Below are positions 40,430 through 49,114 of a stretch of DNA of 64,000 nt, one piece after another. How positions within the stretch are numbered: the first letter of the stretch is position 1; each line of letters opens with the position of its first letter. The notes below the pieces were generated by a model. The model was not told the origin of the DNA and did not search any database. It worked only from the letters and a program-made list of their open reading frames with translations. The DNA comes from Pseudomonas sp. Q2-TVG4-2 (GTDB taxonomy: Bacteria > Pseudomonadota > Gammaproteobacteria > Pseudomonadales > Pseudomonadaceae). The translations under genes were made by a program, and so were the position numbers. The stretch lies in contig NZ_LGLW01000004.1 in assembly GCF_013620795.1 (NCBI RefSeq), positions 496,001-560,000 on the forward strand. Direction: 5' to 3'.

Positions 40430-40588
40430 TGTTTTTCCTACTAAATCCCGCAAAAGAGAGGGGCGCACGCAAAAAAGAGAATCGGAACTACCGAATACGG
40501 CTTGCTTGTTCCTATTTTCGGGACGATACTATTCCCAAGAACAGGTTAGAAACCCGAAAACGGTAAGGCCCGAAACTTGGAATCAGGC
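40430..40588. promoter_or_regulatory. Repressor/early divergent promoter region with CCCGAAA repeats
   Basis: Between repressor and ner. CCCGAAA occurs at 40553-40559 and 40569-40575, with the inverse TTTCGGG at 40516-40522. A 12-bp stretch TTTTCGGGACGA at 40515-40526 recurs exactly inside the repressor gene at 40316-40327. These are good candidates for repressor and Ner operators. A weak -10 (TACTAT, 40527-40532) lies beside the first site. Confidence 0.5.
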
Positions 40589-40930
40589 ATGAAAAAGTCA
40601 AAAGTTCCCCACGACCCGCTGAAGCGTTGGGAGTGGATCAAATGGCAGCTGCGATCCAATAACAGCTCATTAGCCGAACTCGCACGCGGCCTTGGTGTGG
40701 TTCGCAATGCCATGAACAACGTAAAGCGGCAGCCCTACCCAAGGATGGAGCGAGCGATAGCTAAGGCTCTCGGTATGCGCCCAATCGACATCTGGCCGGA
40801 TCGCTGGATCGATGAATCGACCCCAGTACGGGAGCGCCCGAGCAGATCCGAAACCGCCGCTTTGTATGCGCAAAAGCATAACGCAATGCGTGAGCTTGAA
40901 CACGTTAGCAAGAGCAGAAAGGAACCCTGA
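40589..40930 (+). CDS. ner: Ner-like early transcription regulator
   Basis: 113 residues. The N-terminal domain has the Mu Ner/Nlp fold pattern: DPLKRWEWIKWQLRSNNSSL, then AELARGLGVVRNAMNN as the HTH and PYPRMERAIAKALG as the closing helix, followed by the IWPDRW segment typical of Ner. Ner proteins dampen early transcription and block repressor expression in lytic growth. The C-terminal 40 residues are charged and unassigned. The ATG at 40589 starts MKKSKVPHDPLKRWEW; its ribosome-binding site is weak. First gene of the early operon; A follows 2 bp later. Confidence 0.85.
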   Translation: MKKSKVPHDPLKRWEWIKWQLRSNNSSLAELARGLGVVRNAMNNVKRQPYPRMERAIAKALGMRPIDIWPDRWIDESTPVRERPSRSETAALYAQKHNAMRELEHVSKSRKEP

Positions 40931-40932
40931 TC

Positions 40933-42972
40933 ATGCGTAATTGGTACACAGCGCAAGAGCTGGCTGGGAAGCCAGGAATGCCCGGAACCGAGCGCGGTAT
41001 TCGCAAGCTTGCTGAACGCAACGGCTGGGAAGGCCAACGCCGCCTCGGCAGCAAAGCAATTGAATACGCCTTCGCCGTGCTGCCATCCGAAACCCAGGCC
41101 GCACTGATCGCCGCCTCGGTCGCCAGCGAGGCACCTCCTGCCGCATCCGAACAGCAAGAATCGACACAGCGTGACGCGAAAAACGCATCACGCTTAAACG
41201 AAAAGCAACGCTCAGTCATGACAGCTCGCCTCGCCTTCGTGCGTGAGATCGAGCGTATGAGCCAGACCATCAGCCAACAGCGGGCGATCCTGGCGCTAGT
41301 TGACCTAGCCAAAAACGACCAACTCAGCCCGTACCTGACCGAGCTGCTGGTCCGCGCCAATGATAGGAAGACCAACGACCGCAGCCTTTCCGAGCGGACA
41401 CTCAAGCGTTGGCTGGGTGACTACCGCAAGCAGGGTGAAACCGGCCTGGCGCCGGAACGTGGCGGCAAAGATATGGGCGTGCCGGATTGGGCGAAGGACT
41501 TCCTGCGCTGCTTTCAACGGCCGACCAAGCCCAGCGTTGAAGCCAGCTATGCCGAGTTCTCCGCGAAGTGCCAGGGCGAGCGCCCGAGCATTCACCAGGT
41601 GCGTCGCTTCCTCAACAAACTGAGTCCCGAAGCACGCGAGGCGGGTCGACGCACGCCTCAGGAACTCAAGGCGCTGCAGCCATTTCGCCGCCGCACCACC
41701 AAGAACATGTTCCCGTGCGATGTCTTCACCGCAGACGGCCACAAGTTCGATGCCGAAGTATTGAATCCGCGCACCGGCAAGCCGTACCGCCCCGAAACCA
41801 CCACCGTCATCGACGTGGCCACGCGCCGGATACTCGGCATCTCGATCGGCGAAGCCGAGTCGACCATCGGTGTGATGGACGCCCTGCGCGACGCCATCAC
41901 ACGCGGCGGCATGTTCGCCATCTTTTACGTCGACAACGGATCCGGCTTCGCCAACAGCGCGGTGCGTGAAGTGGTCGATCGCCTCGGCGGCACCATGACC
42001 CATGCCCTGCCATACAACAGCCAGGCGCGAGGGCTGATCGAGCGCGTCCACCAGACCATATGGGTCAACGCAGCCAAGAAGCTCACCAGCTACATCGGCG
42101 CCGACATGGACAAGCACGCCGGTACCAAGGTGCACCGCGTCAGCCGCAAGCAGCTCCGCGAGACCGGCACCACCCGTTTGCTGCCCACGTTCAGCGAGTT
42201 CATGTCCGGCGTCGAGTTCGAGATCGAGGCCTACAACGACCGGCCCCACCGGGGCCTGGAAAAGATCCGCGATCCAGAGACCGGCAAGCTGCGCCCCATG
42301 AGCCCCAACGAGGCCTGGGAAGCGGCGCGGGCCGAAGGCTGGGAACCGATGCTGGCTCCAGCCGAGCTGGTTCACGACCTGATGCGGCCGCAAGTCATCC
42401 GCCCGACACGCCGTGGCGAAGTCACCTGGGCCAACCAGCGCTACTTCCTGGACGCGCTGCGCGATCTGCACGGCGAAGAGATCCGGGTGGCCTACGACGT
42501 GCGCGACGCCTCGCGTGTCTGGGTAAGAACGCTGGAAGGCGAGCTGCTCGGCGAGGCACTGCTTGACGGCAACGCCAGCGACTACATGCCCAAGCCGCTG
42601 ATCGAGCAAGCCTATGAGAAGCGCGAGCAAGGCCAGATGAAACGCGCCCTGGACAAACTCGAAACGCTCACCGGCAAGCGAGTGGAAATGATCGCACCGA
42701 CCTCGGCGCCATCCGCCCAGCTCAGCGGCGAGCAGATGGCCGCTGCCCGCCAGTTCGCCATCGATCTCGCACCAACCGCCATCGACTTCCAGCTGCCCGG
42801 CGATAGCGTTGCCCGCTACCGCCTGTGGAAAGAACTGGAAGCGAAGACCCAAACGGGCGCTGAGCTGACCACCGGGGAAGCCCGCTGGCACGCGCATTAC
42901 CCGAGCCGGCAAGAGTGGCAATCAATGAAAGATTTGTTCGACGCGGACCCAAGCCAACAGGCCCGCGCGTAA
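40933..42972 (+). CDS. A: Mu-type DDE transposase (protein A)
   Basis: 679 residues (MuA 663). The N-terminal winged helix (WYTAQELAGKPGMPGTERGI) is followed by end-binding helical domains and the RNase H-like core with D268 in FTADGHKFD, D334 in FYVDNGSGF and E370 in RGLIERVHQT. The core is followed by the beta-barrel domain and a C-terminal region that in Mu contacts MuB and ClpX. It inserts the phage genome by replicative transposition. AAAGGAA precedes the start. All catalytic residues are present, so it should be functional. Confidence 0.95.
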   Translation: MRNWYTAQELAGKPGMPGTERGIRKLAERNGWEGQRRLGSKAIEYAFAVLPSETQAALIAASVASEAPPAASEQQESTQRDAKNASRLNEKQRSVMTARLAFVREIERMSQTISQQRAILALVDLAKNDQLSPYLTELLVRANDRKTNDRSLSERTLKRWLGDYRKQGETGLAPERGGKDMGVPDWAKDFLRCFQRPTKPSVEASYAEFSAKCQGERPSIHQVRRFLNKLSPEAREAGRRTPQELKALQPFRRRTTKNMFPCDVFTADGHKFDAEVLNPRTGKPYRPETTTVIDVATRRILGISIGEAESTIGVMDALRDAITRGGMFAIFYVDNGSGFANSAVREVVDRLGGTMTHALPYNSQARGLIERVHQTIWVNAAKKLTSYIGADMDKHAGTKVHRVSRKQLRETGTTRLLPTFSEFMSGVEFEIEAYNDRPHRGLEKIRDPETGKLRPMSPNEAWEAARAEGWEPMLAPAELVHDLMRPQVIRPTRRGEVTWANQRYFLDALRDLHGEEIRVAYDVRDASRVWVRTLEGELLGEALLDGNASDYMPKPLIEQAYEKREQGQMKRALDKLETLTGKRVEMIAPTSAPSAQLSGEQMAAARQFAIDLAPTAIDFQLPGDSVARYRLWKELEAKTQTGAELTTGEARWHAHYPSRQEWQSMKDLFDADPSQQARA

Positions 42973-42982
42973 CACAACCGGC

Positions 42983-42998
42983 CTCGGGGGAGGCCACA
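42983..42998 (+). repeat. Short hairpin between A and B
   Basis: GGCCTC and GAGGCC with a short G-rich loop, directly upstream of the B gene's ribosome-binding site (AAGGAGA). It may modulate B translation or partly terminate; no U-run. Confidence 0.35.
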
Positions 42999-43009
42999 AG
43001 GAGAGCAGT

Positions 43010-43738
43010 ATGAGTGTTAGCAAAATCGTTGCACTTACAAACGTAGGTCTTCTAGCCAGTGCCATCGAACGTGCGCAATCACGGCCGATGGGACTGCCGG
43101 GGCTGGTCGCCATGTATGGCGCAAGTGGACTCGGTAAGAGCGTCGGTGCCGCCTTCGCGGCCAACCGCTACCGCGCCTACTACGTCGAATGCCGGGACAC
43201 CTGGAGCAAGAAGGCATTCTTGCAGGCGATCCTGCGCGAAATGTCGGTGCTACCGGGGCGCACCCTTTCCGACATGGTCGACCAGGTCGCCGAGCAGCTG
43301 TCGCGCAGCGGCCGACCCCTGATCATCGACGACGTCCAGTACTTGCTGGACAAGGCGGTGGCCAACGTACTGACCGATATCTACAACGCGAGCCAAGGCA
43401 CCCTGGTCTTAATCGGTGAAGAGCGCGTCCCGACCAGCCTGGCCAAGCTGGAGCGGCTGCACAACCGAGTACTTGAATGGGTACCTGCGCAGCCAGCCAC
43501 TCTTGAAGACATGCAGGCACTAGCTGCCGCCAGTTATCCGAAGCTGCAGATCGAAGATGCATTGCTGGAGGATCTGCGCAAAGCGGTCCACGGTTGCCTG
43601 CGCCGCGTGGCGGTCAACCTCTACCGCATCTACTCCGAGGCCGAAGCCATCGGCCTTGACGCCGTCGATCTCCAGCAGTGGAAACAGCTCGGGCGGGGTT
43701 GGTTTACCGGCGAGGCGCCAGCTCGGAGGCGCGCGTAA
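43010..43738 (+). CDS. B: Transposition target-capture ATPase (protein B)
   Basis: 242 residues (MuB 312, so shorter, lacking most of the MuB N-terminal HTH domain). Walker A is GASGLGKS at 37-44 and Walker B LIIDDVQ at 104-110. MuB coats target DNA, stimulates A and gives target immunity. AAGGAG lies upstream. The stop overlaps the next start (TAATG). Confidence 0.92.
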   Translation: MSVSKIVALTNVGLLASAIERAQSRPMGLPGLVAMYGASGLGKSVGAAFAANRYRAYYVECRDTWSKKAFLQAILREMSVLPGRTLSDMVDQVAEQLSRSGRPLIIDDVQYLLDKAVANVLTDIYNASQGTLVLIGEERVPTSLAKLERLHNRVLEWVPAQPATLEDMQALAAASYPKLQIEDALLEDLRKAVHGCLRRVAVNLYRIYSEAEAIGLDAVDLQQWKQLGRGWFTGEAPARRRA

Positions 43739-44352
43739 TGGCTGGCCGTAAGCCTATTCATCTGGAGATGAAGGGCACCAAAGACAATCGCCAGCTGATC
43801 TGGGAAGCCGTACGGGGCGAGCGGCGGCCGTTCACCGTCCAGCAAATCGCCTGGGCCGTCGACTTGGACCTGGAGACGACCCGCTACTGCATCCAAGGGC
43901 TGCAGCGCGCCGGCTTCATCGGGATCGCAGGGGAAAAGGCAACCCGAGGAAAAGAGCAGTTCCTGGAGCTGATCAAAGACTGCGGCGTCGAAGCGCCTCC
44001 TATCACTCGCTCCGGCAAGCCCAGCGTGATCGGCATGGGTACCGAAGCCATGTGGCGCAGTTTGCGGATCCTCGGCGAGGTGTCCGCCGATGAGCTGGCG
44101 GCGCAGGCCTCCGTCTCGGCGAAGACAACGCAACGGACCGCGTCCAGCTATCTGCTCTGGCTCCATCGCGCCGGCTATGTCATCGAGATTTCAGCAGCCG
44201 CGAGCGGCCCGCGAGGGCGCACTGCGCGCTATCGCTTGGCACCAGGCAAGTACACCGGCCCTCGCGCCCCGATGATTCAGCGCATCGGCCAGCTGTACGA
44301 CCCGAATCTTGGCGCAGTTGTTTACAGCCAAACGGAAGGAGCCCAGGCATGA
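43738..44352 (+). CDS. Early-region winged-helix protein
   Basis: 204 residues, start overlapping the B stop by one base. Two winged-helix-like segments can be seen: FTVQQIAWAVDLDLETTRYC / LQRAGFI near the N-terminus and VSADELAAQASVSAKTTQRT / LHRAGYVI near residue 110. Probably a DNA-binding protein of the Mu-like early operon; exact role unknown. Confidence 0.65.
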   Translation: MAGRKPIHLEMKGTKDNRQLIWEAVRGERRPFTVQQIAWAVDLDLETTRYCIQGLQRAGFIGIAGEKATRGKEQFLELIKDCGVEAPPITRSGKPSVIGMGTEAMWRSLRILGEVSADELAAQASVSAKTTQRTASSYLLWLHRAGYVIEISAAASGPRGRTARYRLAPGKYTGPRAPMIQRIGQLYDPNLGAVVYSQTEGAQA

Positions 44353-44741
44353 CCGCCATCCGCCAAACAGTTGAAGAAGCCTGGGGCGGCGAGCCGCCCT
44401 TGTGGATCGGCCTGCTAGCGGCCGAAGTCGAGCGCAGCAACATGACCGTCGCGGCGCGCCGCATCGGCATGAACCGCGCCACCGTCAGTACGGCCCTGCG
44501 CAACTGCTACCCGTCCAACAGCACGGCCGGCGTTGAACGCCGTGTGCTCGATGCGCTGGGCCAGCTGGACTGCCCGGCCCTGGAATCGACCATCACGCTC
44601 ATCCAGTGCCAAACATTCCGCGAAAGGCCCGCCCCAACGCATAACCCAATGGCCATGCAGCACTGGCGCGCCTGCCAGCACTGCACGAACAACCCTACCT
44701 GCAACAGCAAGGAGTCGGCCCATGCACGCCAGCATCAGTGA
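44349..44741 (+). CDS. Early-region HTH protein with C-terminal Cys motif
   Basis: 130 residues. An HTH segment NMTVAARRIGMNRATVSTAL lies near residue 31. The C-terminal end has CQHCTNNPTC, a probable metal-binding knuckle. It overlaps its upstream neighbour by 4 bp and its downstream neighbour by 20 bp. Role in the phage unknown. Confidence 0.65.
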   Translation: MTAIRQTVEEAWGGEPPLWIGLLAAEVERSNMTVAARRIGMNRATVSTALRNCYPSNSTAGVERRVLDALGQLDCPALESTITLIQCQTFRERPAPTHNPMAMQHWRACQHCTNNPTCNSKESAHARQHQ

Positions 44742-45039
44742 AAAGCCGCTGAAAGTCCTAACGCCCCTGCTAGCCGGCTCCTTGCGCGCCTTCAACGACG
44801 CCGCTCGCACGCTGCGCCGCCTGGAGGTCCGCCTCAACCACTTCGACCCGACCGGTAACCGCCTGACCATCGACGCAGAGGGTGGCCGTCGGCTGCTCCA
44901 ACAGCGCCTGGTGGACGGCTTCACCCGTTCCGCCAGCGCTGGCAGCACCAAGTACACCGTCCAGTTCATGGGCGTAACCCTCGAATGGCGCGAAGCCATC
45001 AGCTACACCCGCCCCGAAGAATGGGCAACCACACACTAG
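44722..45039 (+). CDS. Small early prophage protein
   Basis: 105 residues (MHASISEKPLKVLTPLL). AAGGAG lies seven bases upstream of the ATG, which overlaps the preceding gene. It is rich in Arg and Thr, without recognised domain. Confidence 0.6.
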   Translation: MHASISEKPLKVLTPLLAGSLRAFNDAARTLRRLEVRLNHFDPTGNRLTIDAEGGRRLLQQRLVDGFTRSASAGSTKYTVQFMGVTLEWREAISYTRPEEWATTH

Positions 45040-45051
45040 GAGCAACACCGC

Positions 45052-45669
45052 ATGACCATTCAACAGATACCCGCCGGGTTCCGGCAAAACGGCCAGGGCC
45101 ACCTGATCCCGGAAAGCTTGATCAAGCCAATCGACCAGGAGCGCGACCGCCTGGTGCGTCACCTGGTCGACCGTGCCAGCGAGCTGAGCAGCGAGCTACG
45201 CGAGTTCAAGCAGGTCGCCTTCGGTGACATCAAGGCCTTCATCGAAATGAGCTTCGAGGAATACGGCGCCCGCGTCGGCGGCAAGAAGGGCAACGTCACC
45301 CTGCTCAGCTTCGACGGCCGCTACAAGATTCAACTGGCCGTACAGGAAAGCATCGTCCTGGACGAGCGCCTGCAGGCGGCACGCGCACTGATCGACGAAT
45401 GCCTGCGCGACTGGACCGAGGGCGCCCGTCCCGAAGTCGTCACGCTGGTCAACGACGCCTTCCGCGCCGACACCAAGGGCGAGATCCGCACCGCCCGCGT
45501 CCTCGCCCTGCGTCGCCTGGAGATCGGGGACGAGCGCTGGCAGCGCGCCATGAAGGCCATCGGCGAGGCCTGCCAGGTGGTCGGTTCGAAATCCTACATC
45601 CGCATCTATGAGCGCCTGGGCGACACCGACCAGTACCAGCCCATCAGCCTCGACATCGCGGGGGTGTGA
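45052..45669 (+). CDS. DUF3164 family protein of Mu-like phages
   Basis: 205 residues. The pattern KPIDQERDRLVRHLVDRASE, then SFDGRYKIQLAVQES and ARVLALRRLEI matches DUF3164, a family found almost only in transposable phages and placed where Mu carries gam. The function is unknown; a replication or recombination role is inferred from position. Confidence 0.8.
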   Translation: MTIQQIPAGFRQNGQGHLIPESLIKPIDQERDRLVRHLVDRASELSSELREFKQVAFGDIKAFIEMSFEEYGARVGGKKGNVTLLSFDGRYKIQLAVQESIVLDERLQAARALIDECLRDWTEGARPEVVTLVNDAFRADTKGEIRTARVLALRRLEIGDERWQRAMKAIGEACQVVGSKSYIRIYERLGDTDQYQPISLDIAGV

Positions 45670-45670
45670 G

Positions 45671-45889
45671 ATGGCCATGATCGAAGAACGCGAACCATAC
45701 CGGCGCGGCAAGCGGCCCGAAGATGGAATGGATCTGCCGGAGGGCAAGACCTGCGGTGACTGCGTGCATTGTCGCCGCTGCACTCTGATGTTCGGGCATA
45801 TCCCGGCTGACGAGGTTTGCGACTGGTTTCCGTCTCGGTTCGCTGCGTCGCGCCAAAGCGCTTCACTCGACCGGAAGGAGGGATGCTGA
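45671..45889 (+). CDS. Small Cys-rich prophage protein
   Basis: 72 residues. CGDCVHCRRC followed by a fourth Cys in EVCDWFP makes a likely zinc knuckle. Small proteins of this type are common in early operons of Mu-like phages. It begins one base after the DUF3164 stop. Confidence 0.65.
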   Translation: MAMIEEREPYRRGKRPEDGMDLPEGKTCGDCVHCRRCTLMFGHIPADEVCDWFPSRFAASRQSASLDRKEGC

Positions 45890-45890
45890 C

Positions 45891-46346
45891 ATGCAGCGCT
45901 ATCACCAACCCAGCGTAAATGCCTTGCCTACGTGTCCAGCTCATCTGGAGACAGAAAGCCAGCGCCTGGCCGAAGCCACCGAAGCGTTTCTCGCCAAGGG
46001 CGGCCAGATCCAGGCCGTCGGCAATCAGATGAAAGACAGCTATCCGGCGTTCGTCATCAACCCGGCGAAGACGCCGGTCTACGCCCACCTGTTCGAGCAC
46101 GCGAAGGCGCTTTCGGCCTTTCCTGTTCCGATCGAGACGTTGCGTGTTTTGCCGGAGCCGTCAGCGGTAGCTGCTCAGCCAGAGGCGGACCAGGTGCAAC
46201 TCAGCGATGCCCAACTGGCCGGCAAGGTTATGGCCAAGGACATGGTCGGGCACCCGCCCAAGCGCATCGGCGAGCAGCTGAACCTGAGTGAGAAGAAGGT
46301 TCGGCAGCTCTGCCGCGATTACAACATCACCGTCCGCCAGCGCTAG
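45891..46346 (+). CDS. Prophage protein with C-terminal HTH
   Basis: 151 residues. The last 40 residues form an HTH-like segment (PPKRIGEQLNLSEKKVRQLC followed by RDYNITVRQ); the first 60 are helical. Possibly a regulator or DNA-binding adaptor of the early operon. Confidence 0.6.
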   Translation: MQRYHQPSVNALPTCPAHLETESQRLAEATEAFLAKGGQIQAVGNQMKDSYPAFVINPAKTPVYAHLFEHAKALSAFPVPIETLRVLPEPSAVAAQPEADQVQLSDAQLAGKVMAKDMVGHPPKRIGEQLNLSEKKVRQLCRDYNITVRQR

Positions 46347-46354
46347 GAGGCCCC

Positions 46355-46582
46355 ATGGCCGAGTACACGATCACCATTAAAGACGAAGACGACGGCGTGT
46401 CGATCCAGATGGCAGGCCCCGCCGTAGCAGATAGCACCGCCAACGCGCTGACCCAGGGGCTGCTCGGCATCGCCCCACGGCTGCTGGCCAAGGTCGCGCT
46501 GGAAAAGCTGCAGCCGTGCCAGTGCGAGCGCTGCAAGGCCGAGCGCAACGCACCCGCCAACCCCAACACCACGATCCACTAA
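46355..46582 (+). CDS. Small prophage protein with CxCxxC motif
   Basis: 75 residues. It starts MAEYTITIKDEDDGVSIQMA and ends with a Cys motif PCQCERCKAER. AGGAGG precedes the ATG. No known family. Confidence 0.6.
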   Translation: MAEYTITIKDEDDGVSIQMAGPAVADSTANALTQGLLGIAPRLLAKVALEKLQPCQCERCKAERNAPANPNTTIH

Positions 46583-46593
46583 GGAGCAACACC

Positions 46594-46887
46594 ATGACCC
46601 TGACCAAACAAGCCCTGATCGAAACCATCACCCAGGAACTGGGTGCGAGCGGCACACCCATCAGCAAAACCCAGGTCGATGCCGTCCTGGTGCGCTACTC
46701 CATGGTTGCGGCACGCACCCTGCACAACGGCGGCGACGTACCGCTGCCGGGCCTGGGCAAACTCAAGGCCAGCCATCGAGCCGCCCGCCCTGGTCGCAAT
46801 CCCAGCACCGGTGAGGTGATCGAGATTCCCGCCAAGTACGGCGTGAAGTTCACCCCGGCCAAGTCGCTCCTGGACACCCTCAACTAA
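46594..46887 (+). CDS. HU/IHF-family DNA-binding protein
   Basis: 97 residues. The DNABII fold is recognisable: MTLTKQALIETITQEL, then VPLPGLGKLKASHRAARPGR (the beta-arm with the NPSTGEVIEIP motif). HU is needed for Mu transpososome assembly in E. coli, so a phage copy is sensible. AAGGAG lies seven bases upstream. The stop codon is immediately followed by a hammerhead-like element. Confidence 0.9.
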   Translation: MTLTKQALIETITQELGASGTPISKTQVDAVLVRYSMVAARTLHNGGDVPLPGLGKLKASHRAARPGRNPSTGEVIEIPAKYGVKFTPAKSLLDTLN

Positions 46888-46944
46888 GCGAAACCGCCCC
46901 GGCCGGGGCGGTCTGCCGGGCGTGGTGGCCCGGTACTGATGAGC
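46888..46944 (+). ncRNA. Candidate hammerhead ribozyme, copy 1
   Basis: Reading from the HU stop: CGAAA (46889-46893); stem III ACCGCCCC/GGGGCGGT (46893-46900 with 46905-46912); UC ending at C46913, the expected cleavage site; stem I TGCCGGGC/GCCCGGTA (46914-46921 with 46928-46935); then CTGATGAG (46936-46943). The invariant G10.1-C11.1 pair is G46943-C46889, and C46944-G46888 adds one more. This is the complete hammerhead core in the circular permutation with open stem II (type II). Stem II is only 2 bp, the weak point. The next gene's GAGGA follows at once. Confidence 0.75.
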
Positions 46945-46957
46945 AGCCGAGGAAGCA

Positions 46958-47632
46958 ATGGATCACAAGAAGGCCCTGGAAAAGATTAAGAAGTGCCTGC
47001 GGCTCGCCGCAAGCAGCAACCCGCACGAGTCCGCCGCAGCCATGCGCCAGGCGCGTGCACTGATGGAGAAGTACCAGGTCGGCGAAGCTGACGTACTGAT
47101 AGCCGACGTGCTGGAAGTCGGTGCGCGCAGCGGCTCGAAGGTGAACCCGCCGCAGTGGGAGGCCAATCTGGCCGGCACCGTAGCGCGAGCCTACAGCTGC
47201 CGCGTCATCTTTATCGCCGGCCCCGGCGACTGGTCATTCATCGGCGAGATGGCCGAGATAGCGGGCTACGCCATGACCGTGCTGCTGCGGCAGGTGAGGC
47301 AGGCCCGCCGCGACTACATCGCCGACACGCTGAAGCGCTGCAAAACGGCGACCAAGACCCGCCGCGCCGACGTCTTCTGCGATGCGTGGGTATGGTCGGT
47401 TAGAACCAAGGTTCAGGAATTCGCGGGCAGCCAGGCGCCATCGGCAGCCGTTGAGGCATACATCCGCAAGCATCACCCCGAACTGGAAAGCGGTAAGGCC
47501 AACGACCGCAACGCCACCAAGGGCAAGTTGAGCAATCGCGCGATCAATGACGCAGCCAATGGAATCCGCGCCGCCACAGGCGTCCAGCTCAACCATGGCG
47601 TGGATGGCCAGGCGCCCCTGGCATTGCACTGA
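46958..47632 (+). CDS. DUF2786 family prophage protein
   Basis: 224 residues. The N-terminal segment KIKKCLRLAASSNPHESAAA / MRQARALMEKYQVGEADV is the DUF2786 signature (a small helical domain), followed by a longer domain common to such phage proteins. Function unknown. Remarkably, it is bracketed by two hammerhead-like repeats: one ends 14 bp before its ATG and the other begins directly after its stop. Confidence 0.8.
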   Translation: MDHKKALEKIKKCLRLAASSNPHESAAAMRQARALMEKYQVGEADVLIADVLEVGARSGSKVNPPQWEANLAGTVARAYSCRVIFIAGPGDWSFIGEMAEIAGYAMTVLLRQVRQARRDYIADTLKRCKTATKTRRADVFCDAWVWSVRTKVQEFAGSQAPSAAVEAYIRKHHPELESGKANDRNATKGKLSNRAINDAANGIRAATGVQLNHGVDGQAPLALH

Positions 47633-47696
47633 GCGAAACCTAGCCCCCTCACCGGGGCGACGGTCTGCCGGGCGTGGTTGCCCGGTACTGATGAGC
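47633..47696 (+). ncRNA. Candidate hammerhead ribozyme, copy 2
   Basis: Same architecture as copy 1: CGAAA at 47634-47638; stem III of 3 bp (ACC/GGT) and 5 bp (GCCCC/GGGGC) around an internal loop; UC with cleavage expected after C47665; stem I TGCCGGGC/GCCCGGTA (47666-47673 with 47680-47687); CTGATGAG at 47688-47695. Stem III differs in sequence from copy 1 but keeps its pairing, and the core is unchanged. Stem II again only 2 bp. Confidence 0.72.
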
Positions 47697-47709
47697 AGCC
47701 GAGGACACC

Positions 47710-47931
47710 ATGCAACTGCTACGAAACCGAGCCGATTGGTGCGAGTGGGCCGAGAGGCTCGCTGGCGTCAGCATCCGCCACGCCTACAACGTACCGGCCG
47801 AGCCAGCCGCCTACCCCTGTTTCGCCTACGCCGTTATTGAGAGCTTTGCCTATGAGGTCGAAGCGGCCAGTTATCTGCTCCCTGTTGACCTCTGCAGGAT
47901 GGCGGCCGAGCTGCTGGAGACTCGCCCATGA
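47710..47931 (+). CDS. Small prophage protein behind the second hammerhead
   Basis: 73 residues (MQLLRNRADWCEWAERLAGV). GAGGA from the end of the ribozyme repeat is its ribosome-binding site. Helical, with several Trp/Tyr; no family recognised. The stop overlaps the next start. Confidence 0.6.
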   Translation: MQLLRNRADWCEWAERLAGVSIRHAYNVPAEPAAYPCFAYAVIESFAYEVEAASYLLPVDLCRMAAELLETRP

Positions 47932-48209
47932 CTGACGAGCGCAAGGCCGAACGGATCCGCCAGCAGAACGCCGCACGCCAGCAAGCAAGGCGCGATCGCA
48001 AGCAGCTCCGCCGCGAGCAGGTTGGAGCCGAGAAGATCAAGTTCGAGATCTACGGCGGCACCCGCCGCGACCTCGACGCGATGCAGCAGGTTGGCGGCTA
48101 CGCCGAGACGGGTGAGGCCATCACCCTCGCCATTCGCTACATGGCCGCCATGGCCCGCCGGGATCCGGCTGCGTTCGCCGAGGCAATGAACCCGAGGAAC
48201 CCACTGTGA
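47928..48209 (+). CDS. Small basic prophage protein
   Basis: 93 residues. The first 35 are a very basic helix (RIRQQNAARQQARRDRKQ), likely to contact nucleic acid, followed by a short ribbon-helix-helix-like part (KFEIYGGTRRDLDAM). Overlaps both neighbours by 4 bp. Confidence 0.6.
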   Translation: MTDERKAERIRQQNAARQQARRDRKQLRREQVGAEKIKFEIYGGTRRDLDAMQQVGGYAETGEAITLAIRYMAAMARRDPAAFAEAMNPRNPL

Positions 48210-48607
48210 GCAGTCTCGCCAAGATCCACATTGCCAAAAGCCAGCTGGGGCTTGATGACGACACGTACCGCGCATTGCTGGCCCGCGTGGCCGGCGTGCG
48301 CTCGGCCAAAGAGCTGAGCCCGCGCCAGATCGGTGCCGTCCTGGCTGAGTTCGAGCGCCTTGGCTTCAAGCCCAAGCCTGCAAAAAAGGCAGGCCGATCA
48401 GTGCCAAAGCCAGCACAAGACAGAGCATCCCTAGTCGGCAAGATCGAGGCCTTCCTGGCTGAAGCGAATCGCCCCTGGGCATACGCCGACGCGATGGCGT
48501 TGCGTATGTTCAAGGTCGAACGGGTAGAATGGCTCGATAGTGGCCAGTTGCAACGTCTGGTCGCCGCCTTTGTGTATGACGCCAAGCGCCACGGGAAGCC
48601 CACCTAA
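48206..48607 (+). CDS. gemA: GemA-like protein (Mu gp16)
   Basis: 133 residues from a GTG start that overlaps the upstream stop (GTGA). The signature KIHIAKSQLGLDDDTYRALL and the later VERVEWLDSGQLQRLVAAF are those of the Mu gp16/GemA family, which alters host gene expression by an effect on DNA supercoiling in Mu. Its stop overlaps the mor start (TAATG). Confidence 0.9.
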   Translation: MSSLAKIHIAKSQLGLDDDTYRALLARVAGVRSAKELSPRQIGAVLAEFERLGFKPKPAKKAGRSVPKPAQDRASLVGKIEAFLAEANRPWAYADAMALRMFKVERVEWLDSGQLQRLVAAFVYDAKRHGKPT

Positions 48608-49035
48608 TGGAAATCGACCAGGTCAAAGAGCTGCTGCCAAAGCAACTTTTGGATATCGCGGAGGCCATCGGCCTGCCCGCTGCCCAGCGCCTGGTCGATG
48701 AATTGGGCGGGACCACCTGGCCAGTCGCCAAGGGCGTGCGACGGCTGGGCATCATCCGGCACGAAGCCTTGAAGGAAGTGATCGGTGAGCGCGCAGCCAC
48801 CATCATGGCCGAGCAATGGGGCAGCGTGCCGCTGTACATCCCCAAGTGCGAAGCCGCCATCCGCCGCCTGCGTGACTTGGAGATCAACCGCCAGTACGTC
48901 CAGGGCGTGCGCGAAGGCGTGTCAGCTAATACCTTGGTCGCCGAGCTGGCCCGCAGCTACAAGCTCAGCGATCGGAGAGTCTGGGAGATACTGAAACAGC
49001 CGTCACCCGAGGCAACCGGCGATCTGTTTCACTGA
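48607..49035 (+). CDS. mor: Mor-type middle/late transcription activator
   Basis: 142 residues. N-terminal dimerisation part (LLDIAEAIGLPAAQRLVDEL) and C-terminal HTH (TLVAELARSYKLSDRRVWEI) match the Mor/C family, which activates middle or late promoters of Mu-like phages. Last gene of the early operon; a terminator follows 37 bp later. The duplicated elements at 49728 and 58516 are candidate targets. Confidence 0.9.
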   Translation: MEIDQVKELLPKQLLDIAEAIGLPAAQRLVDELGGTTWPVAKGVRRLGIIRHEALKEVIGERAATIMAEQWGSVPLYIPKCEAAIRRLRDLEINRQYVQGVREGVSANTLVAELARSYKLSDRRVWEILKQPSPEATGDLFH

Positions 49036-49071
49036 AGGCTTTACGCCATCAATACAAGGAAGTAAAAGACA

Positions 49072-49097
49072 AGCCCCGCCAAGCGGGGCTTTAATTT
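49072..49097 (+). terminator. Intrinsic terminator of the early operon
   Basis: AGCCCCGC / GCGGGGCT with a 3-nt loop followed by TTTAATTT. Nearly identical to the terminator at 49696. Confidence 0.88.
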
Positions 49098-49114
49098 AGG
49101 GCAAGGAGCTTGCA

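What the first reader, a model, noticed from the sequence alone, without database searches (positions are those of the whole stretch)
46888..46944. Complete hammerhead ribozyme core directly after the prophage HU gene
All invariant hammerhead positions are in place: CGAAA, an 8-bp stem III, UC at the cleavage position, an 8-bp stem I, then CUGAUGAG, with G10.1-C11.1 paired. The motif fills the gap between the HU stop and the next ribosome-binding site, exactly where an RNA-processing element would be useful. Hammerheads are known from bacteria and phages but I know of none described in this gene setting.
Basis: partly seen in the sequence, partly recalled or inferred. Interest (0 to 1): 0.93.

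Follow-up and report, generated by a model that had tools for sequence, protein, structure and literature searches.

The report
Paired hammerhead ribozymes bracketing prophage gene
A virus genome integrated in this bacterium carries two copies of a known self-cutting RNA motif, one on each side of a single gene of unknown function, and they would likely cut that gene's message out of a longer transcript; the motif and this kind of arrangement are already known, so it is a clear new example rather than a new kind of system.

Summary
46888-46944 is a canonical type II hammerhead (Rfam RF02276, 79.5 bits, E 5e-15). They bracket one gene (46958-47632, DUF2786+DUF7168); each starts right after a stop codon and ends against the next Shine-Dalgarno. 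In related Mu-like phages 60 of 63 distinct ribozymes start within 1 nt of the stop codon, and the loop I/3'-tail pseudoknot pairs in 251 of 252 cells, with compensatory changes. The bracketed genes vary; HU is the upstream gene in only 14 of 47 loci. Most likely mechanism (cleavage untested): self-cleavage at 46913|46914 and 47665|47666 releases a 752-nt single-gene mRNA with a hairpin at each new end. Type II hammerheads, this pseudoknot, ribozymes flanking prophage genes and enrichment near Mu-like phage genes are in print: a new member of a known kind. Most striking in relatives: a phage contig with 24 hammerheads alternating with mostly small ORFs, which my paper searches did not turn up.

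The parts
46888..46944 (+). Hammerhead 1, type II, P2 to P2 (Rfam bounds 46886-46952); predicted cut 46913|46914
   Evidence: RF02276 79.5 bits, E 5.1e-15; pattern match; coordinates
46893..46912 (+). Stem III hairpin of hammerhead 1 (would become the 3' end of the HU-side RNA, plus C46913)
   Evidence: 8 bp, -16.6 kcal/mol
46914..46935 (+). Stem I hairpin of hammerhead 1 (would become the 5' end of the DUF2786 mRNA); UGGU 46923-46926 is the loop strand of the pseudoknot
   Evidence: 8 bp, -15.7 kcal/mol; covariation in relatives
46936..46942 (+). Catalytic core CUGAUGA (with GAA 46890-46892 and C17 46913)
46946..46949 (+). Tail strand GCCG of the predicted pseudoknot; G46949 is also the first base of the SD
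   Evidence: pairs with 46923-46926; 251 of 252 cells paired in relatives
46949..46953 (+). Shine-Dalgarno GAGGA of the DUF2786 gene
   Evidence: best anti-SD duplex -5.9 kcal/mol
47633..47696 (+). Hammerhead 2, type II (Rfam bounds 47631-47704); predicted cut 47665|47666
   Evidence: RF02276 59.3 bits, E 9.7e-10; coordinates; stem III 47638-47664 with an internal loop, stem I 47666-47687
47698..47701 (+). Tail strand of the pseudoknot of hammerhead 2 (with 47675-47678); SD GAGGA 47701-47705 follows
46594..46887 (+). HU-family DNA-binding protein gene upstream of hammerhead 1
   Evidence: PF00216, E 2.6e-23
46958..47632 (+). Bracketed gene, 224 aa, DUF2786 + DUF7168 (phrog_421)
47710..47931 (+). 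73-aa ORF after hammerhead 2, no known family
47928..48209 (+). 93-aa gene (phrog_4093); in many relatives it directly follows the last hammerhead
48206..49035 (+). GemA (48206-48607) and Mor (48607-49035), Mu-like middle-gene module
   Evidence: PF06252 and PF08765

Best explanation
Two type II hammerhead ribozymes bracket one gene in the operon of a Mu-like prophage and are predicted to cut the long transcript on both sides of it, which would release a 752-nt single-gene messenger. Cleavage would leave a 2',3'-cyclic phosphate one base after the stem III hairpin on the upstream RNA and a 5'-hydroxyl at the first base of the stem I hairpin on the downstream RNA. In the type II topology both new ends therefore carry a hairpin from the start, and I infer that this protects them from exonucleases and from 5'-end-dependent RNase E. 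The ribozyme fills the gap between stop codon and Shine-Dalgarno, so it puts a physical break where the next three junctions of the operon overlap by 1-4 bases; the bracketed gene could then have its own mRNA stability and translation rate. Shown here: sequence, core, placement, conservation, covariation, variable cargo. Inferred: self-cleavage in the cell, end protection, independent expression.
For: Two RF02276 matches far over the cut-off. The stop codon ends within 1 nt of the ribozyme start in 60 of 63 distinct ribozymes of 47 Mu-like loci. Core CUGA(U/C)GA and GAA kept in 63 of 63 while stem I position 5 shows five standard pair types and pairs in 63 of 63, shuffle mean 27. Pseudoknot 251 of 252 cells with UGGU/GCCR to UAGU/GCUA, and UCGC/GCGA in L323. 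In the same host genus each of the 3 of 56 genomes that has the ribozyme has exactly two; the gene content between the two varies over 25 two-ribozyme loci, so what is kept is the bracketing and not the gene. No terminator-like site at either ribozyme and no promoter-like site in 40500-49100. PMC3088659 reports cleavage of three tandem hammerhead sets in vitro, in-cell cleavage for one of them, and in haloviruses HF1/HF2 a hammerhead variant 13 nt before a start codon with a mapped 5' end within three nt of its cut.
Against: No cleavage or RNA data exist for this locus. In PMC3088659 4 of 18 consensus hammerheads were inactive. The second ribozyme is not universal: 22 of 47 loci show one (some are cut by contig ends), and JBD24 has the DUF2786 gene with only one. 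Sets were found with the same model or pattern, so core conservation is partly built in. In RcapMu and RC1 other gaps of 92 and 58 nt in the operon hold no RF02276 match, so a long gap is not always a ribozyme. End protection is inference.
Confidence: 0.62

Rival explanations
1. The ribozymes are brakes: cleavage separates downstream from upstream genes and exposes RNA to decay, lowering output of the genes after the cut, perhaps in a regulated way (control of the fold by ribosomes, a protein or a ligand).
For: The pseudoknot tail shares a base with the SD, so ribozyme fold and ribosome binding abut; the genes starting 7-10 nt after a ribozyme have no SD above background (mean -2.97 against -3.16 kcal/mol, 22 junctions).
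Against: Both new ends would carry hairpins of mean -16.8 and -14.4 kcal/mol in the 63 ribozymes; the 37 junctions with the start 12-19 nt away keep an SD of -5.9 or better.
Confidence: 0.18
2. The element acts at the DNA level: a conserved GC-rich block at which phages recombine, so that cargo genes are swapped between two ribozyme copies.
For: Cargo between two ribozymes varies and five loci have a single ribozyme directly before the 93-aa gene, as an empty slot would look.
Against: Stems diverge with compensating changes while the catalytic core stays, which DNA recombination would not require; in 25 two-ribozyme loci stem I of the two copies is not more alike within a locus (3.6 differences) than between loci (3.8). 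Exchange may be a by-product rather than the function.
Confidence: 0.08
3. The excised RNA is joined into a circle by a ligase that uses 5'-OH and cyclic-phosphate ends, giving a circular DUF2786 messenger.
For: Two cuts flank the gene and give matching ends (inference).
Against: RtcB (PF01139) has no match in the own genome, while the control finds it in 9 of 14 known genomes; PMC3088659 looked for spliced or circular products of such pairs and detected none.
Confidence: 0.03
4. A hammerhead-like relic or chance hairpin pair without activity, or a transcription terminator.
For: Not every consensus hammerhead cleaves (14 of 18 in PMC3088659); full-length folding z-scores are unremarkable.
Against: E-values and 0 chance matches in 100 shuffles; kept core with compensated stems; longest T-run of 1 within 8 nt after stem III in 63 of 63, so no terminator tail.
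Confidence: 0.05

Closest known systems
Type II hammerhead ribozyme (Rfam RF02276; PMC3088659)
   Same: Same core, same topology with open 2-bp stem II, same loop I/3'-tail pseudoknot, prophage setting, ribozymes flanking a single gene with transcript processing proposed by its authors.
   Different: Nothing in the ribozyme itself. Added here: stop-codon and SD packing, variable cargo between paired copies in Mu-like phages, HU as one of several upstream genes.
Self-cleaving ribozymes enriched near Mu-like phage genes (Roth 2014 and Weinberg 2015, as cited in PMC10085705)
   Same: Same kind of phage and same ribozyme class.
   Different: The two source papers were not held, so I could not see whether this very junction is listed there.
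Hammerhead variant before the helicase gene of haloviruses HF1/HF2 (PMC3088659)
   Same: Ribozyme 13 nt before a start codon in an early phage operon, mapped 5' end within three nt of the cut.
   Different: Archaeal virus, variant core, a single copy described.
RiboJ-type ribozyme insulators of synthetic biology (recalled, no call)
   Same: A hammerhead that trims a 5' leader and leaves a 5' hairpin.
   Different: Engineered type III ribozyme placed before a reporter gene; not natural.

Membership tests
Hammerhead ribozyme, type II (RF02276) | Invariant core: GAA, U16.1, H17, CUGANGA, G10.1-C11.1 | tested here: met
   Both window copies
Hammerhead ribozyme, type II (RF02276) | Stems I and III closed by hairpin loops, stem II open | tested here: met
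Hammerhead ribozyme, type II (RF02276) | Score over the curated gathering cut-off (37 bits) | tested here: met
   79.5 and 59.3 bits
Hammerhead ribozyme, type II (RF02276) | Pseudoknot between loop I and the 3' tail | tested here: met
   UGGU/GCCG in both copies; 251 of 252 cells in relatives, shuffle maximum 250 of 1000 shuffles
Hammerhead ribozyme, type II (RF02276) | Covariation of stems I and III across relatives | tested here: met
   Stem I position 5: 63 of 63 paired, five pair types, shuffle mean 27; stem III positions 3 and 4 above shuffles, positions 5-7 not
Hammerhead ribozyme, type II (RF02276) | Self-cleavage 3' of H17 | not testable with these tools
   No bench or RNA data
Ribozyme-made circular RNA (retrozyme-like) | Two same-strand ribozymes flanking the RNA | tested here: met
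Ribozyme-made circular RNA (retrozyme-like) | Host ligase for 5'-OH and cyclic-phosphate ends (RtcB) | tested here: not met
   PF01139 0 of 1 in the own genome; control 9 of 14
Intrinsic terminator | GC hairpin followed by a T-run | tested here: not met
   No + strand terminator-like site at either ribozyme; longest T-run 1 in 63 of 63

The most novel reading that the evidence does not exclude
Some phages use the type II hammerhead as a standard intercistronic punctuation mark, stop codon | ribozyme | Shine-Dalgarno, that turns a polycistronic transcript into single-gene messengers born with a hairpin at each end. The window shows the two-mark form around an exchangeable gene slot; the extreme form is a contractile-tailed phage with 24 consecutive hammerheads, nearly all followed by one mostly small ORF.
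Probability: 0.5. Interest if true: 0.78.

Novelty: new member of a known kind. Interest (0 to 1): 0.5.

Why it matters
What bacterial and phage hammerheads are for is called open or unknown in the papers I read passages of. This locus makes it testable: the same element matches 119 Pseudomonas phage records, among them the named phages D3112, JBD24, JBD30 and MP22, the predicted ends are exact to the base, and the tight packing between stop codon and start signal says what to look for. If confirmed, ribozymes would be an operon-segmentation device in phages.

Tried and rejected
HU as the conserved partner: rejected. The first Mu-like records suggested it, but clustering of the genes upstream of the first ribozyme gave HU in 14 of 47 loci, another small family in 28 and others in 5; Pfam finds no HU in D3112, JBD24 or B23. 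The window's own 46355-46582 protein recovers 12 of those 28 directly by phmmer.

Core as Shine-Dalgarno: for genes that start 7-10 nt after the ribozyme (22 junctions) I tested whether CUGAUGAG could bind the anti-SD; the mean best duplex (-2.97 kcal/mol) equals the background (-3.16), so rejected.

Recent duplication or gene conversion of the two copies: not supported across 25 two-ribozyme loci, though the window's own pair differs at one of 22 stem I positions. The 25 include near-identical loci (L012-L014; L020 and L187).

Circular RNA: disfavoured. Terminator: rejected.

Rows dropped or missed: my finder found nothing in 4 of 51 loci (L193, L194, L317, L318); Rfam finds L317 and L318, and the genome search had scored the places of L193 and L194 at 44.6 and 30.8 bits, the latter under the cut-off. 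L004-L009 and L021-L046 are shorter copies of places counted elsewhere and were left out of the counts. The 119 genome contigs stretches (L195-L313) and L325-L327 were fetched and not analysed. L010-L020 were picked for a DUF2786 relative, which inflates the DUF2786 cargo count. The cargo and ORF calls are mechanical (longest ORFs), not annotated genes.

Full report
What was claimed and what is there. Rfam confirms it as type II (RF02276, 79.5 bits, E 5.1e-15) and finds a second at 47631-47704 (59.3 bits, E 9.7e-10). A search of the whole held genome gives these two and no other at E 0.001. The gapped core pattern has two matches in the window and none in 100 dinucleotide shuffles. Stems III and I of the first copy fold as 8-bp hairpins of -16.6 and -15.7 kcal/mol. 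In the second copy stem III is 3 bp, an internal loop and 5 bp (-12.5), and stem I is -15.5. The full-length energies are not exceptional (z -1.49 and -0.53), so overall stability is not what identifies the motif.

Gene setting. The element lies in the operon of a Mu-like prophage: Mu A-type transposase 40933-42972, B-type ATPase 43010-43738, HU-family protein 46594-46887, DUF2786+DUF7168 protein 46958-47632, 73-aa and 93-aa (phrog_4093) ORFs, GemA 48206-48607, Mor 48607-49035. The two ribozymes bracket the DUF2786 gene. Each starts at the base after a stop codon (TAA 46885-46887, TGA 47630-47632). The last base of each pseudoknot tail is the first of the SD GAGGA (46949-46953; 47701-47705), with ATG 13 nt after P2. 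A consensus scan found no promoter-like site in 40500-49100 (shuffle mean 1.2) and no terminator-like site at either ribozyme.

Relatives. 154 phage records match the 86-nt element, 119 of them Pseudomonas phages. In the host's genus 3 of 56 genomes carry RF02276, each with exactly two copies; in the family 21 of 398, 20 of them over the cut-off. Of the eleven IMG/VR loci with a DUF2786 relative I searched seven records whole, and each has exactly two. The ten named Mu-like phage records searched (JBD24, JD024, LPB1, D3112, B23, P1, RC1, RcapMu and two Vibrio phages) have one each.

Measurements on 51 fetched Mu-like loci. My finder gave 72 ribozymes, 63 distinct, in 47 loci. Core: CUGAUGA with C17 in 49, CUGACGA with C17 in 13, CUGAUGA with A17 in one. 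Stem I positions 5 and 6 pair in 63 of 63 with five and two standard pair types, against shuffle means of 27 and 50; stem III positions 3 and 4 are above their shuffles, positions 5 to 7 are not clearly so. The pseudoknot pairs in 251 of 252 cells; 1000 shuffles reach at most 250, and sliding the partner by 1-3 bases gives 0 to 189. UGGU/GCCR (56 of 63) changes to UAGU/GCUA (2), CGGU/GCCG (3) and UGGC/GCCA (1); one has UGGU/GCCC. The margin over shuffles is small because the strands vary little; the compensated changes and the slid controls carry the argument. Stop codon end relative to ribozyme start: 0 in 50, one base off in 10, -3 in one, none in two. ATG after P2: 13 nt in 28, 7-9 nt in 21, other distances in 12, none in 2. 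The 37 junctions at 12-19 nt have an SD (mean -6.3 kcal/mol, weakest -5.9; background mean -3.2, best quartile from -4.7); the 22 at 7-10 nt do not (-3.0). These loci were found with the same model or pattern, so core conservation is partly built in; the stop-codon packing was not part of any search.

Variable genes around a fixed ribozyme. Among 25 loci with two ribozymes, the ORFs between them include DUF2786 without the 135-aa family in 18, both in 3, the 135-aa family without DUF2786 in 3, and neither in 1. Five loci have one ribozyme followed directly by the 93-aa gene (in D3112 that gene is annotated from a later start). Upstream the gene is HU in 14 of 47 and another small family in 28 of 47. 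HU also precedes the ribozyme in Pelagibaca phage P1 and Rhodobacter phages RC1 and RcapMu (RcapMu is one of the 14). So the ribozyme is the landmark and its neighbours change.

Arrays. One IMG/VR contig (57,338 bases; terminase, portal, contractile tail sheath) has 24 type II hammerheads, all over the cut-off; my finder finds 24 too, at the same places. Of 23 segments between them, 22 hold an ORF of 26-334 aa (21 of at most 119 aa) and 19 end with a stop codon within 2 nt of the next ribozyme. All 24 have the same core, all are distinct, and stem I positions 1-8 pair in all 24 with varied pair types; the pseudoknot pairs in 95 of 96 cells, including three UCGC/GCGA (one of 1000 shuffles reaches 95). 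Streptomyces phage Salutena has 12, 11 over the cut-off. In other arrays the stop is looser, often 2-9 nt or more before the ribozyme. Of ten cargo and array proteins searched, two match a PHROG (both of unknown function) and none passes a Pfam cut-off.

Mechanism. In type II topology the cut lies between two closed hairpins. The upstream RNA would end one base after stem III with a cyclic phosphate, and the downstream RNA would start with stem I and a 5'-hydroxyl. Such ends are poor substrates for 3' exonucleases and for 5'-monophosphate-dependent RNase E (established knowledge, not tested here). In the window the three junctions after hammerhead 2 and its first gene overlap by 4, 4 and 1 bases while the two ribozyme gaps are 70 and 77; in JBD24 and JD024 the ribozyme gap (75, 70) is the only one over 34. 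In RcapMu and RC1 it is not: gaps of 92 and 58 nt without an RF02276 match lie beside it. I commit to segmentation of the transcript into end-protected single-gene messengers at 0.62, with cleavage itself at about 0.9.

What is known. PMC3088659 (abstract, section 6 in full, section 11 part 1, passages elsewhere) reports type II hammerheads, this pseudoknot, ribozymes flanking prophage genes with processing proposed, cleavage of three tandem sets, and 14 of 18 tested RNAs active. PMC10085705 (passages) says that of the genes near which hammerheads and twisters are enriched, those of Mu-like phages show the strongest association, reason unknown. PMC6155905 (passages) calls prokaryotic hammerhead function open; PMC7761336 (passages) notes all three types in phages. 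My searches (listings) turned up no report of arrays as long as 24 or of the stop-codon packing, but the library is open-access only and lacks two key papers. The finding itself is a new member of a known kind.

Noticed in passing
L323 (IMG/VR contig IMGVR_UViG_3300017605_000570, about 9.9-17.5 kb): 24 type II hammerheads in a row on one strand, alternating with single, mostly small ORFs of unknown function, in a contractile-tailed phage.
   Followed up: partly
L322/L324 (Streptomyces phage Salutena, MT708548): 12 RF02276 matches (11 over the cut-off) in one annotated isolate phage, in the stretch 37.9-47.4 kb.
   Followed up: partly
L069, L082, L100, L129, L137, L163: Other IMG/VR phage contigs with several hammerheads between genes (3 to 9 matches per record, some under the cut-off), with looser spacing to the stop codon.
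   Followed up: no
for example L002:2514-2583, L170 and L171 second ribozyme: The 93-aa gene often starts 7-9 nt after the ribozyme with no Shine-Dalgarno better than background; how it is translated is unexplained.
   Followed up: partly
window 47638-47664: Stem III of the second ribozyme has an internal loop, and several second ribozymes in relatives share it; role unknown.
   Followed up: no
L319 10856-11131 of JN190960 (RcapMu HU gene): The deposited record notes a potential -1 frameshift near the end of the HU gene, just before the hammerhead.
   Followed up: no
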